A stretch of 64,000 bases of DNA from an uncultured Clostridia bacterium (GTDB lineage Bacteria > Bacillota > Clostridia > Lachnospirales > CAG-274). Under the pieces are notes generated by a model. The model was not told the origin of the DNA. It saw only the letters and a list, made by a program, of their open reading frames with translations, and searched no databases. Positions 39,402 through 44,246 of this stretch are shown here, piece by piece. The stretch is from contig CALWLD010000009.1 of NCBI GenBank assembly GCA_944381435.1, forward strand, positions 1-64,000, in the 5' to 3' direction. Position numbers and translations under genes: made by a program. Position 1 is the first letter of the stretch, and each line of letters opens with the position of its first letter.

Positions 39402-41306
39402 TTATATGTTATTATTTATAAGTAATTCTAATATTTTGTTACTTCTTTCTATAAAGTTTGTTTTTGAATTCATATCTAAATGTTTATTACTCATTGTTGC
39501 TAAATCATAAATTTGGTTACAAATAAGGCTTGTTTCTTCTTTTTTGCTTTCATCATCTTTTAATTTTAAAAGTAATTTAACAACATTATTATTACCATTT
39601 AAGATTAATGTTTCATCACTTGGCATAGCACCAAAAGGTATAGACATACCATACATTTGAGCCATCTCTTCCATTCTTCGTGCTTGTTCACTAAGCTGGA
39701 TAACACCAGATATATCTGTAGTTTTTAAATTTTCTACTTTAATTTTAAGGTTATCACCTTTGTTTAATGTTTCTTTAAATAAAGTTTCTAAAGCCTCATT
39801 AAGTTCTTTATTTTCTTCTATGTTGTTATCTTTTAAAGTGTCAGATAAATCGCTATCTATCCTAACAAAGCTAATACCTTGGTTATACATTTCTAAAGTA
39901 GACATATAAGGGTTATCTAATTTTGTATTTAAAATAACAGCGTCCATATTGTTATCTTTAAACATTTTAATGTATTGAGCTTGTTGTGTTTTATCTGTAA
40001 CATAGAAAACTTTATTTTCGTGATGTTCTTTGTTTTGTTCTAAATATTCGTTTAATGTAACATATTTATCATTAATAGTTTTAAATAATAAGCTATCTTT
40101 TACTTTATCATAAAAATCTTTTTCTTTAAGACAGCCATATTTTATAAATTGGCTTATATCGTCCCAAAAACCTTCAAATTCTTCACGTTGTTTTTTAAAT
40201 AAGCTATTTAGCTTATCAGCAACTTTTTTAGTGATATACTTACTCATTTTTGTAACATAGCCATCGTTTTGTAAAAAGCTACGGCTTACATTAAGTGGTA
40301 AATCAGGACAATCTAGCGTACCTTTTAAAAGAAGTAAAAATTCTGGTATAACTTCTTTTAAATTATCTGCTATAAACACTTGATTGTTATATAATTTAAC
40401 TTGTCCTTCTATAGAATCTAGCTCGTGTTTTAATTTAGGGAAATATAAGATACCTTTTAGCTTGAAAGGATAGTCCATATTTAAGTGTATCCAAAATAAT
40501 GGTTCGTTAAAATCGGAAAATACTTGATGATAAAATTCTTTGTATTCTTCATCGCTACATTCGTTAGGTTGTTTTAGCCAAAGAGGGTTAGTTTTATTAA
40601 TAGGTAAAAGCTCTTTAACCTCATTTTCATCTATTGTATCGTTATTTTTATCTTCTTCGGCTTCTTTTTTCATTGCCTCTATATCTTCAAAGAATATTTC
40701 TATAGGCATAAAATAGCAATATTTATTTAATATTTCACGTAGTTTAAAGGCATTTAAAAAGTCTTTACCTTCTTCTCCCACAAAAAGTGTGATTGTAGTA
40801 CCACGTTCTTTTCTATCGCTTTCACCAATTTCATATTCTATGCCACCGTCACATATCCATTTAGCAGGTTTAGCACCTTCTTTATAAGATAAAGAATCTA
40901 TCATAACTTTATCTGCAACCATAAATGCAGAATAAAAACCAAGACCAAAATGCCCTATAATGTCTCCACCATCTTCTAGTTGGTCTTTATATTTATTAAC
41001 AAAATCGCTAGCACCTGAAAAAGCTATTTGCGTAATATATTCTTCTATTTCATCAGCAGTCATACCTATACCGTTATCTATAATTTGTATAGTGCTATTT
41101 TCTTTATCAAGGACAACTTTAATGCTAAATTTTTCATTATCAGGAAGGCTAGCCTCACCCATAGTATTTAATTTTTTTAATTTATTTATGGCATCGCAGC
41201 CGTTAGAAACTAATTCCCTAATAAATATATCAGAATCAGAATAAAGCCATTTTTTTATAATAGGCAAAATGTTTTCACTATTAATTGAAAGATTACCTTT
41301 TTTCAT
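39402..41306 (-). CDS. htpG: Chaperone protein HtpG (Hsp90)
   Basis: The 634-aa ATP-dependent chaperone has the GHKL ATPase domain first (IFIRELVSNGCDAINKLKKL, then IQIIDNGIGMTADEIEEY, then GHFGLGFYSAFMVADKV), the middle domain (FWIHLNMDYPFKLKGILYFPK, then PLNVSRSFLQND) and the C-terminal dimer domain. Length is normal. AGGAGG precedes the ATG. Its promoter and a CIRCE palindrome lie directly upstream, which indicates HrcA control. Confidence 0.97.
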   Translation of the reverse strand: MKKGNLSINSENILPIIKKWLYSDSDIFIRELVSNGCDAINKLKKLNTMGEASLPDNEKFSIKVVLDKENSTIQIIDNGIGMTADEIEEYITQIAFSGASDFVNKYKDQLEDGGDIIGHFGLGFYSAFMVADKVMIDSLSYKEGAKPAKWICDGGIEYEIGESDRKERGTTITLFVGEEGKDFLNAFKLREILNKYCYFMPIEIFFEDIEAMKKEAEEDKNNDTIDENEVKELLPINKTNPLWLKQPNECSDEEYKEFYHQVFSDFNEPLFWIHLNMDYPFKLKGILYFPKLKHELDSIEGQVKLYNNQVFIADNLKEVIPEFLLLLKGTLDCPDLPLNVSRSFLQNDGYVTKMSKYITKKVADKLNSLFKKQREEFEGFWDDISQFIKYGCLKEKDFYDKVKDSLLFKTINDKYVTLNEYLEQNKEHHENKVFYVTDKTQQAQYIKMFKDNNMDAVILNTKLDNPYMSTLEMYNQGISFVRIDSDLSDTLKDNNIEENKELNEALETLFKETLNKGDNLKIKVENLKTTDISGVIQLSEQARRMEEMAQMYGMSIPFGAMPSDETLILNGNNNVVKLLLKLKDDESKKEETSLICNQIYDLATMSNKHLDMNSKTNFIERSNKILELLINNNI

Positions 41307-41337: not shown

Positions 41338-41366
41338 ATTTTAATACCTTATATGTAAAATGTCAA
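41338..41366 (-). promoter_or_regulatory. Sigma-A promoter of htpG
   Basis: On the minus strand TTGACA (41366-41361) and TAAAAT (41343-41338) are exactly 17 bases apart, about 31 bases before the htpG ATG. Confidence 0.85.
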
Positions 41367-41373
41367 GAAAAAA

Positions 41374-41400
41374 CTAGCACTCTTTTTAAAAGAGTGCTAG
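41374..41400. promoter_or_regulatory. CIRCE element (HrcA operator), also terminator-like
   Basis: CTAGCACTC-N9-GAGTGCTAG matches the CIRCE consensus TTAGCACTC-N9-GAGTGCTAA at eight of nine positions in each arm, with the exact spacer of nine. On the minus strand it is followed by TTTTTTC and then by the htpG -35 box. It starts 11 bases after the stop of the upstream flavoprotein gene, so the same palindrome could end that transcript. Confidence 0.9.
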
Positions 41401-41411
41401 TAAATGAACTT

Positions 41412-42998
41412 TTACAAACTATTAATAATTGCCTCAGCACATTTTATACCATCAACACCAGCAGATACAATACCCCCAGCATAGCCACAACCTTCTCCAC
41501 AAGGATATAAACCTTTATATTTTAAAGATTGTAAGCTATCTTTATCTCTAATTATTCTAATAGGAGATGAGCTACGGCTTTCTACGGCAGTTAATATACC
41601 GTTTTCATCACCAAAGCCTTTTATTTTTTTATCCATTTCTATGATACCAAGCTTTATAGATTGGTATATAAAATCAGGGAATATTTCTCTAAAATCGGAA
41701 GGGGTTACCCCTGGTTTAAAGGTAGGTTCAATATTGCCTATAGATGTAGATTTTACATCTTTTAATATATCACCGATTTTTTGAACAGGTGCAAAGTAAT
41801 TGTTACCACCTGCTATAAAAGCTTTTTCTTCAATGCTACGTTGAAATTTAACACCAGATAACATATCATTATCGTCTAAATCATCAGGATAAACTTCTAT
41901 TAATAAAGCACTGTTTGCATTTTTGCCACCTCTATCAAAATAGCTCATACCGTTTGTAACAAGCCTATTTTTTTCTGAAGAAGCATTTACAACATAACCA
42001 CCAGGGCACATACAAAATGTATAAGCACCACGGTTATTAGGGAGCCTTACAGCTAGCTTATAATCGGCAGGGGGTAGATAGCAAGCAAATTTGCCGTATT
42101 GAGCTTTATTAATAAAATCTTGGCTATGTTCTATACGAACGCCTACTGCAAAAGGTTTTTTCTCAATAGGGTGGTTTTTGCTATTTATAAGTTCAAAAGT
42201 ATCTCTAGCACTATGACCTATTGCTAATATTACATTATCTGTTTCTATATTAAAAACTTTATTTTCTTTTAAACTTTCCACAGTAACGCCTGTTATTTTG
42301 TTATTTTCTGATAATAAATCTATCATTTTATGCTCAAATAAAACTGTACCACCTAAAGATATTATTTCGTTACGCATATTTCTAACCATTGTTATAAGCC
42401 TATCTGTGCCTATATGTGGCTTTGCAGTATATAATATTTCTTCAGGAGCAGATGCTTTTACAAACTCCTCTAACAAAACACGGCATCTATAGTCTTTTAT
42501 ACCTGTTGTAAGCTTGCCGTCAGAAAATGTACCAGCACCACCTTCTCCAAACTGTACATTAGAATTTTCATCAAGATTACCATTTTCCCAAAAATCATCT
42601 ATATCTTTTTTACGTTCATCAACGCTTTTGCCACGTTCTATAATGATAGGGTTTAAGCCACTACGAGAAAGGACAAGACCTGCCATAAGACCTGCAGGGC
42701 CAAAGCCTACTATAACAGGGCGTTTGTTATGTTGTTTTTTAGGTATATCATATATAAAAGGCGTAACTTTTGTAACATCTTTAATTTTTAAATATTTATC
42801 TTCTTCTTTTACATCAATATCTAATGCAAGAACATAAAAACCACCACGTTTTTCCCTTGCATCTATAGATTTTTTAGCTATTTTTATATTTAAAATATTA
42901 TTTTTTTCTGTTTTTAAAATTTTACATACAATATTTTTTAAATTATCTATTGTTATTTCCTTTTCTAAAGGGTATTTTATATTAGATATTTTTATCAT
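41412..42998 (-). CDS. FAD-dependent dehydrogenase (COG2509 type)
   Basis: The 528-aa flavoprotein has an N-terminal domain of about 90 residues, then the FAD-binding Rossmann motif VIVGFGPAGLMAGLVLSRSG (about 95-114). The block VQFGEGGAGTFSDGKLTTG (about 148-166) is the hallmark of this uncharacterised group. The C-terminus has the second nucleotide contact GLYPCGEGCGYAGGIVSAGVDG. The substrate is unknown. It lies 12 bases downstream of the second flavoprotein gene and is probably co-transcribed with it. Confidence 0.88.
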   Translation of the reverse strand: MIKISNIKYPLEKEITIDNLKNIVCKILKTEKNNILNIKIAKKSIDAREKRGGFYVLALDIDVKEEDKYLKIKDVTKVTPFIYDIPKKQHNKRPVIVGFGPAGLMAGLVLSRSGLNPIIIERGKSVDERKKDIDDFWENGNLDENSNVQFGEGGAGTFSDGKLTTGIKDYRCRVLLEEFVKASAPEEILYTAKPHIGTDRLITMVRNMRNEIISLGGTVLFEHKMIDLLSENNKITGVTVESLKENKVFNIETDNVILAIGHSARDTFELINSKNHPIEKKPFAVGVRIEHSQDFINKAQYGKFACYLPPADYKLAVRLPNNRGAYTFCMCPGGYVVNASSEKNRLVTNGMSYFDRGGKNANSALLIEVYPDDLDDNDMLSGVKFQRSIEEKAFIAGGNNYFAPVQKIGDILKDVKSTSIGNIEPTFKPGVTPSDFREIFPDFIYQSIKLGIIEMDKKIKGFGDENGILTAVESRSSSPIRIIRDKDSLQSLKYKGLYPCGEGCGYAGGIVSAGVDGIKCAEAIINSL

Positions 42999-43010
42999 TT
43001 TGTTACCTTT

Positions 43011-44246
43011 CTAAATCATAGATTTTACACAAGCTTTTGTAGCAACATAAGAAGAAGCCCAAGCCCATTGTAAATTAAAGCCACCACAATCTCCTACAAC
43101 ATCTAAAATTTCCCCAGCACAATATAAGCCTTTTATTATTTTAGATTCTAAAGTTTTATCATTAAACTCCTTAGTTTTTAACCCACCAGCAGTAACCTGT
43201 GCATTGTTAAAGCCGTTTGTATCTAATATTTCTAGTTTATAATTTTTTATATGATAAGCCATATTTTTAAGGATATCATCTGTTAAGTTTTTTACTAAAA
43301 AAGATAGCTTTTCTATGCCACTTGTTTTAGCTATAATATTACCTAAACGTTTGTTTAAAAGACCATTAAAATAGTTTTCTAAATTTGTGTAAGAAAGTAT
43401 TTTTTTTCTATCTTTTAATATGTTAAAAACATCTTCTTCTGTGAAATTTGGCATAAAATCTATATAGCCTATTAAGTTTTTATACCTAGCAAAAAGGGTA
43501 GATAGCTGAAAAACAGGAGGACCGGATATGCCATAATCTGTAAATAAAATTTCTCCGTATTCTTCTTTTAAAAAGGTATCTTTTGAATACATTTTTAAAT
43601 TACCTGTTATTTTAATACCTTTTAATGCTTTTACCTTTTCTGTAGGTGTTTTTAACTGTACTAAAGCAGGGGTAAGGGGAGTTGAGCTATGTCCTAAAGA
43701 TTTTAACAGCTTAATACCACCACCGTTTGTGCCTAAATTAGGGCTTGCAGTACCACCTGTTGCAAATATTATTTTATCTGCTAACACAGTTTCACCTTTT
43801 GCAGAAGTTATTTTAAATTTATCATTTTTTTTACTAATATTTTTAACATCAAATTCTGTTTTTATAGGTATATTTAAGCTATCAATTTTATTTCTTAAAG
43901 CATCTAATATGCTAGAGGCTTGTTCACTATAAGGATATACCTTACCATTTTCTAAAACAGTATGTAAGACACCTAGGTTATAGAAAAAATTTATAGTATC
44001 TTGAGAGGAAAACTGCTCTAAAAAATATTTTGTAAAAAAGCTATCTTCCCCATAAAAATTTTCATAAGTTGCATATATATTTGTAAAATTACAACGTCCA
44101 TTACCTGTTGCTAATATTTTTTTACCAACTCTATCTAGTTTTTCTAAAATAATTATATTTATTTTATCTTTTGCAAAGTTATAAGCGTGTATTGCTGAGC
44201 TAAGCCCAACAGCACCACCACCTACAATAGCTAATGTTTTTTTCAT
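43011..44246 (-). CDS. BaiN/YhiN-type flavoprotein (HI0933 family)
   Basis: The 411-aa protein starts with AIVGGGAVGLSSAIHA and has the family motif GKKILATGNGRCNFTN (about residues 42-57), GGTASPNLGTNGGG near 165, and a C-terminal FAD contact GLYCAGEILDVVGDCGGFNLQWAW. The family is annotated as aminoacetone oxidase-like or as 3-dehydro-bile acid reductase (BaiN); the real substrate here is unknown. It forms an operon with the following COG2509 flavoprotein. Confidence 0.88.
   Translation of the reverse strand: MKKTLAIVGGGAVGLSSAIHAYNFAKDKINIIILEKLDRVGKKILATGNGRCNFTNIYATYENFYGEDSFFTKYFLEQFSSQDTINFFYNLGVLHTVLENGKVYPYSEQASSILDALRNKIDSLNIPIKTEFDVKNISKKNDKFKITSAKGETVLADKIIFATGGTASPNLGTNGGGIKLLKSLGHSSTPLTPALVQLKTPTEKVKALKGIKITGNLKMYSKDTFLKEEYGEILFTDYGISGPPVFQLSTLFARYKNLIGYIDFMPNFTEEDVFNILKDRKKILSYTNLENYFNGLLNKRLGNIIAKTSGIEKLSFLVKNLTDDILKNMAYHIKNYKLEILDTNGFNNAQVTAGGLKTKEFNDKTLESKIIKGLYCAGEILDVVGDCGGFNLQWAWASSYVATKACVKSMI

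What the first reader, a model, noticed from the sequence alone, without database searches (positions are those of the whole stretch)
41338..41400. CIRCE palindrome doubles as a terminator just ahead of the htpG promoter
The 27-base element at 41374-41400 matches CIRCE (eight of nine bases per arm, N9 spacer). On the htpG strand it is followed by six T and then by a perfect TTGACA-17-TAAAAT promoter. It begins 11 bases after the stop of the upstream flavoprotein gene. Thus one sequence could end the upstream transcript and hold HrcA upstream of the -35 box, whereas CIRCE usually lies at or downstream of the start point. htpG is outside the HrcA regulon in Bacillus subtilis, so this control is itself of note.
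Basis: partly seen in the sequence, partly recalled or inferred. Interest (0 to 1): 0.55.

Follow-up and report, generated by a model that had tools for sequence, protein, structure and literature searches.

The report
Heat-shock operator that resembles a terminator
A heat-shock control site sits just upstream of the promoter of the Hsp90 gene htpG at a nearly fixed distance in many related bacteria, and the same palindrome also has the form of a stop signal for the gene before it; that htpG carries such a site in some clostridia is already known, while the fixed upstream position and the likely double use are the interesting part.

Summary
Observation confirmed: CTAGCACTC-N9-GAGTGCTAG at 41374-41400, then T6, C, TTGACA-17-TAAAAT (11 of 12) and htpG, minus strand; the upstream stop is 11 bases away. 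The genome has hrcA. The layout is widespread: 33 of 48 family genomes carry it exactly, all at htpG; 222 of 392 order genomes and 36 of 228 other class genomes match the pattern, against 2 of 115 outside the class. CIRCE to -35 is 7 nt in 107 of 114 htpG loci. Best reading: an HrcA operator upstream of the promoter. The terminator half is plausible but secondary: a T-run follows 89 of 105 htpG CIRCEs against 3 of 108 flanks of other CIRCEs; T-run and fully pairing spacer occur in 55 and 26 of 59 loci with an abutting same-strand gene, against 9 and 0 of 17 with a divergent one. Only 3 supported independent lineage pairs exist, so this is suggestive. CIRCE at htpG in clostridia is already in print; position and link with neighbour orientation are the new part.

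The parts
41374..41400 (-). CIRCE operator, CTAGCACTC-N9-GAGTGCTAG (predicted HrcA site)
   Evidence: 2 mismatches to the 18-base consensus, none in 100 shuffles; hrcA present; kept at htpG in relatives
41373..41401 (-). 13-bp RNA hairpin, loop of 3, made of the CIRCE arms plus the self-complementary spacer
41368..41373 (-). run of six T directly after the CIRCE (possible U-tract of a terminator; also the stretch just upstream of the -35 box)
   Evidence: T-run of at least 4 in 89 of 105 htpG loci
41361..41366 (-). -35 box TTGACA, 7 nt after CIRCE
   Evidence: gap of 7 nt in 107 of 114 loci
41338..41343 (-). -10 box TAAAAT
39402..41306 (-). htpG (Hsp90)
   Evidence: NF003555
41412..42998 (-). 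FAD-dependent protein gene that ends 11 nt before CIRCE
   Evidence: PF21688

Best explanation
The palindrome is an HrcA operator (CIRCE) for htpG placed at about -69 to -43 relative to an inferred start point, just upstream of a sigma-A-type promoter. HrcA bound there most likely represses by covering the stretch where the alpha C-terminal domains and region 4 of sigma approach the promoter; heat occupies GroE, HrcA loses activity and the promoter is freed. Where a same-strand gene ends right before it, as here, RNA of the same palindrome plus the T-run also acts as an intrinsic terminator for that gene and shields htpG from read-through. Shown: sequence anatomy, conservation, nearly fixed spacing, hrcA in the genome. 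Inferred: start point, HrcA binding, direction and mode of control, termination.
For: hrcA present, 199.9 bits; near-exact CIRCEs (1 mismatch in 16 core bases) lie before hrcA and before a groES-like gene in the same genome. CIRCE, 6-7 nt, TTGAC precedes htpG in 8 of 8 named loci. Family: 33 of 48 genomes match; 33 of the 34 sites are at htpG. Order: 222 of 392 genomes match; of the sites fetched, 70 of 70 primary ones are at htpG and 6 of 6 second or odd-gap ones, fetched on purpose (one of them the family's 34th), show no htpG in the stretch held. Class: 18 of 20 fetched sites precede htpG, gap 7 in 15, 8 in 2, 9 in 1. The layout stays when the neighbour changes or diverges. Terminator half: T-run of 4 or more after 89 of 105 htpG CIRCEs but in 3 of 108 flanks of 61 other CIRCEs of the family, none starting within 2 bases of the core; T-run 55 of 59 abutting against 9 of 17 divergent; spacer fully pairing in 26 of 59 against 0 of 17, Fisher p 0.0003, with 6 expected from shuffled spacers and, taking one locus per genus, 13 of 33 against 3; in the window's genus 7 of 7 against 0 of 1.
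Against: No binding, expression or 3'-end data. Published HrcA sites whose passages I saw lie at or after the start point (L. plantarum +3 and +4; C. jejuni over the start site). On the tree only 3 well-supported independent pairs separate abutting from divergent loci; full spacer pairing goes the predicted way in 2.3 on average and never the other way, but the sign test cannot reach 0.05; for T-runs the agreement is weaker (T5 or more: 1.5 the same way, 0.1 the other). By genus, abutting against divergent plus far gives T-run 31 of 33 against 18 of 24 (p 0.06) and spacer pairing p 0.11. T-runs persist in 9 of 17 divergent loci, so they are not only a terminator feature. 33 of 59 abutting loci lack a fully pairing spacer. 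The A-runs that replace T-runs come from three genera only (g6, g11, g35); in g6 and g11 they occur with divergent and with far same-strand neighbours alike, and in g35 with an abutting gene. Genus g7 keeps htpG without any CIRCE-like site (up to 4 mismatches) in 7 of 7 readable stretches.
Confidence: 0.6

Rival explanations
1. Operator only. The palindrome is an HrcA site; it looks like a terminator because any CIRCE is an inverted repeat and its promoter-side flank is AT-rich, and the T-run serves the promoter.
For: T-run kept in 9 of 17 loci with a divergent neighbour, one of them in the window's own genus; operator and spacing kept where no terminator is needed; independent pairs too few to exclude shared ancestry.
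Against: Among 29 parsed TTGACA-17-TAWAAT matches elsewhere in this genome only 3 have five or more T in the 9 nt upstream; by eye 5 have five or more A. Full spacer pairing in abutting loci is well above shuffled spacers (26 against 6) and absent in 17 divergent ones.
Confidence: 0.29
2. Terminator only. The hairpin ends the flavoprotein transcript and its likeness to CIRCE is incidental.
For: Stable hairpin plus T6 placed 11 nt after a stop codon.
Against: No such CIRCE match in 100 shuffles; the arms and the 7-nt gap persist at htpG with unrelated or divergent neighbours over an order; in g6 and g11 the T-run is gone but CIRCE stays.
Confidence: 0.03
3. HrcA bound at about -56 does not simply block the promoter: it acts as an activator, or as a roadblock to read-through from the upstream gene rather than on the htpG promoter.
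For: The site lies where upstream activators can bind (recalled); relative to read-through polymerase it lies ahead, as classical CIRCEs do; the nearly fixed gap suggests a defined geometry.
Against: HrcA is described as a repressor; the layout persists with divergent neighbours, where there is no such read-through.
Confidence: 0.08

Closest known systems
HrcA/CIRCE class I heat-shock control (groES-groEL, hrcA-grpE-dnaK-dnaJ)
   Same: Same operator sequence, regulator gene in the genome, chaperone target.
   Different: The operator lies upstream of the -35 box at a nearly fixed 7 nt, instead of at or after the start point as at this genome's own hrcA (by eye) and in L. plantarum and C. jejuni (passages).
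CIRCE upstream of hsp90/htpG in Clostridium cellulovorans and C. acetobutylicum (PMC8336468, passages; the cited Tomas 2003 not seen)
   Same: Same operator and target gene.
   Different: The passages give no position relative to the promoter and no terminator role.
CIRCE upstream of chaperone promoters in Mycoplasma gallisepticum (PMC4245973, passages)
   Same: Operator described as upstream of the promoters.
   Different: Other genes (clpB, dnaK, lon, dnaJ_2); no fixed spacing or terminator use in the passages seen; that paper also questions the function of CIRCE there.
Rho-independent (intrinsic) terminators
   Same: Stem, short loop and T6 just after a same-strand stop codon.
   Different: The stem is also a match to a protein-binding site; only 5 of 13 pairs are G-C.

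Membership tests
HrcA/CIRCE operator | Inverted repeat TTAGCACTC-N9-GAGTGCTAA with few mismatches | tested here: met
   2 mismatches of 18, none in 100 shuffles
HrcA/CIRCE operator | hrcA gene in the same genome | tested here: met
   PF01628, 4.9e-59; TIGR00331 over cut-off
HrcA/CIRCE operator | Lies before a chaperone gene and is kept there in relatives | tested here: met
HrcA/CIRCE operator | Bound by HrcA; target released without HrcA or by heat | not testable with these tools
   needs gel shift, footprint, hrcA mutant
HrcA/CIRCE operator | Usual (not defining) position at or after the start point | tested here: not met
   upstream of the -35 box; start point itself inferred, not mapped
Intrinsic terminator | Stable hairpin with short loop followed at once by a T-run | tested here: met
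Intrinsic terminator | Placed after the stop of a same-strand gene, no other terminator-like site before the next promoter | tested here: met
Intrinsic terminator | Terminator features tied to an abutting same-strand gene in relatives | tested here: inconclusive
   trend; too few independent pairs
Intrinsic terminator | Transcript 3' ends map to the T-run | not testable with these tools
   needs 3'-end mapping
Sigma-A promoter | TTGACA, 16-18 nt, TATAAT-like box | tested here: met
   11 of 12, spacer 17; -10 columns partly conserved although not part of the search pattern

The most novel reading that the evidence does not exclude
Across much of one clostridial order the htpG CIRCE is a two-level element: as DNA it holds HrcA at a fixed distance upstream of the -35 box, and as RNA it ends the abutting upstream gene. 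The orientation of the neighbour then shapes its free parts: self-pairing spacer and T-run where a same-strand gene abuts, relaxation, in two lineages to an A-run like an ordinary UP element, where no terminator is needed. Because the operator brings its own terminator, upstream genes can be exchanged freely, as seen in the window's genus.
Probability: 0.33. Interest if true: 0.6.

Novelty: new variant of a known kind. Interest (0 to 1): 0.42.

Why it matters
CIRCE is usually described at or after the start point. A nearly fixed placement upstream of the -35 box at one gene over a whole order gives a clean system to ask how HrcA acts from there, and whether one palindrome is kept by selection on both its DNA and its RNA form. 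It also predicts that htpG belongs to the HrcA regulon in a large clostridial group.

Tried and rejected
A chance palindrome was rejected (none in 100 shuffles). A local oddity was rejected. Terminator alone was rejected (CIRCE kept without T-run in g6 and g11). A conserved second promoter upstream of CIRCE, which would put CIRCE in the classical place, was looked for as column conservation in 52 genus representatives: beyond the bases next to the arm, the highest column in the 60 upstream is 0.6 bits, so it was not supported. The phylum search gave 2 of 115 genomes outside the class, not followed up. The tree test for relatedness proved underpowered (HtpG fragments, 97 rows, shortest 46 residues; part of its output was cut). 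CtsR was not found in the genome, but the same search did not ring in B. subtilis, which has CtsR (passages), so the absence is not conclusive. Paper searches for an operator that doubles as intrinsic terminator and for CIRCE in Lachnospiraceae gave nothing on point in their listings.

Limits of the counts. The pattern demands exact 8-base arms and TTGAC, so conservation of those columns is partly by selection; gap length, gap letters, flanks and the -10 box are not. Six of the eight named loci (L006-L010, L013) match G-handle loci closely and look like the same sites, so all eight named loci are left out of the 105; L075, with no readable upstream gene, is left out too. Order-level loci beyond the family are those the tool fetched (30) plus 40 that I picked to spread over genera, out of 222 matching genomes. 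Upstream genes were called by open-frame length, not by family search; 8 of 105 were set aside as unknown by my judgement, and 2 (L045, L049) re-assigned after a tblastn hit. The cut at 30 nt for 'abutting' was mine. The listing was cut by the tool, so most genomes of the window's genus are missing from the 61 control CIRCEs; its last base had to be non-G; what genes the controls belong to was not checked.

Full report
What is there. On the minus strand, reading towards htpG: flavoprotein stop codon (last base 41412), 11 bases, CTAGCACTC-TTTTAAAAA-GAGTGCTAG (41400-41374), TTTTTT C, TTGACA (41366-41361), 17 bases, TAAAAT (41343-41338), a leader with AGGAGG, and the htpG ATG at 41306. The element matches CIRCE with one mismatch per arm and is the only such site in the window; 0 in 100 shuffles. 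Because the nine-base spacer pairs with itself, the RNA form is a 13-bp stem with a 3-nt loop, -17.9 kcal/mol, z -6.4. The promoter scores 11 of 12; the plain consensus scans found no clear excess over shuffles (promoters 4 against 4.6, terminators 1 against 0.5).

Regulator and other sites. The genome (38 contigs, 98.8% complete) has one hrcA match. Sites with up to 3 mismatches in 16 core bases: htpG (0), before a groES-like gene (1; gene named by eye), before hrcA (1), and a weak one (3) before an mcsA-like gene (103.6 bits, under the model's cut-off of 210). At hrcA the CIRCE lies after a -35/-10 pair read by eye, the usual place. So this genome seems to hold both layouts.

Conservation. 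The 8 named relatives found by protein search (uncultured Clostridia or Eubacteriaceae, one Blautia, one Lachnospiraceae) all have CIRCE, 6 or 7 bases, then TTGACA or TTGACT before htpG. In the family the exact pattern occurs in 33 of 48 genomes, 34 sites; 33 sites are at htpG (30, three) and one is not. Of 45 family genomes with an htpG match, 36 have the CIRCE: 33 exact and three with one changed arm base (G010, G011, G028). In genus g7 no CIRCE-like site with up to 4 mismatches is present in 7 of 7 readable stretches; G018 is cut by a contig end and G027's htpG is incomplete. In the order 222 of 392 genomes match; 70 of 70 fetched primary sites are at htpG. In the class 36 of 228 genomes outside the order match; 18 of 20 fetched precede htpG, with gap 7 in 15, 8 in 2 and 9 in 1, the last (L174) without a clear promoter. 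Outside the class 2 of 115 match. In 114 family, order and named loci the gap, free to be 3-11 nt, was 7 in 107, 6 in 4 and 8 in 3.

Neighbour. In 51 of 113 loci the upstream gene belongs to one sequence cluster of same-strand genes, mostly of about 150-180 codons; the one member tested matches DUF5721. In the window's genus (8 genomes) the neighbour is the flavoprotein in 5, two other same-strand genes in 2, all seven ending 3-11 nt before CIRCE, and a divergent gene in 1. In 12 of 59 abutting loci the upstream stop lies inside the CIRCE. Little or no room is then left for another terminator.

Terminator test. Of 105 loci: 59 abutting same-strand, 7 intermediate, 14 far, 17 divergent, 8 unknown. 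T-run of four or more: 55 of 59, 6 of 7, 11 of 14, 9 of 17, 8 of 8. A-run of four or more: 1, 0, 2, 6 and 0, from three genera only. Spacer pairing at all three outer positions: 26 of 59, 1 of 7, 2 of 14, 0 of 17, 2 of 8; abutting against divergent p 0.0003; in 61 control CIRCEs 0 or 4, by the strand read; shuffled spacers give 6 of 59. By genus, mean pairing is 1.5 in 33 against 0.4 in 10 groups (p 0.02), but abutting against divergent plus far is p 0.11 for pairing and 0.06 for the T-run. On a tree of HtpG fragments only 3 supported independent pairs exist; full pairing goes the predicted way in 2.3 on average and never the other way, which cannot reach significance. The T-run is typical of htpG CIRCEs (89 of 105) and rare at other CIRCEs (3 of 108 flanks), and rare before other TTGACA-17-TAWAAT matches of this genome (3 of 29 with five or more T; 30 of 78 matches fetched, 29 parsed).

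Reading. The simplest account of a CIRCE at a nearly fixed distance upstream of one chaperone gene's promoter, over an order and parts of a class, is an HrcA operator. With the start point inferred 7 nt after the -10 box it covers about -69 to -43. Repression by covering the polymerase's alpha and sigma contacts is my inference from recalled promoter knowledge. The terminator role fits the anatomy at this locus very well and the comparative trend modestly. The T-run persists in about half of the divergent loci, so it probably also has a promoter role or decays slowly.

Known and new. CIRCE upstream of hsp90 is in print for C. cellulovorans and, as cited there, C. acetobutylicum (PMC8336468, passages). 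Heat induction of htpG in C. botulinum is in PMC3806222, which in the passages seen sets htpG apart from the class I genes and names CIRCEs only at the dnaK and groE operons. In B. subtilis HrcA is described as repressing the hrcA-dnaK and groE operons (PMC8957991, passages). CIRCE upstream of promoters is mentioned for M. gallisepticum (PMC4245973, passages). In the listings of my searches I found no paper on the fixed upstream position at htpG or on a CIRCE used as terminator (the library lacks most subscription papers).

Noticed in passing
L005 (contig C8:38619-38643): A weak CIRCE-like site (3 mismatches) whose spacer holds TTGACA lies just before an mcsA-like gene (under cut-off); no CtsR was found in the genome, though that search also missed B. 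subtilis. HrcA may control this operon.
   Followed up: partly
htpG loci of the order; window 41401-41403: The flank before the left CIRCE arm is conserved beyond the textbook 27 bp: T at -2 carries 1.76 bits, T at -3 1.12 and G at -1 1.04 in 52 genus representatives. Many other CIRCEs show the complementary ACAAA on one side. The HrcA site may be longer than described.
   Followed up: partly
L078-L084 (genus g7 of the family): Seven readable htpG upstream regions of one genus have no CIRCE-like site although exact CIRCEs occur elsewhere in these genomes.
   Followed up: partly
L072, L073, L110, L113, L116, L118, L119, L120, L124, L126, L129, L132: The upstream same-strand frame ends inside the CIRCE (12 of 59 abutting loci), so a ribosome there would cover part of the left arm of the hairpin.
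   Followed up: partly
L032, L034, L076: The htpG match starts several hundred bases after CIRCE, suggesting long leaders in a few genomes.
   Followed up: no
L171, L172 (class, f30): At htpG outside the order the T-run can be an A-run (AAAAAGTA) with the same 7-nt gap to TTGACA.
   Followed up: no
window 41412-44246: Two adjacent FAD-dependent oxidoreductase-like genes (PF21688 type, and TIGR00275 type) precede htpG on the same strand.
   Followed up: no
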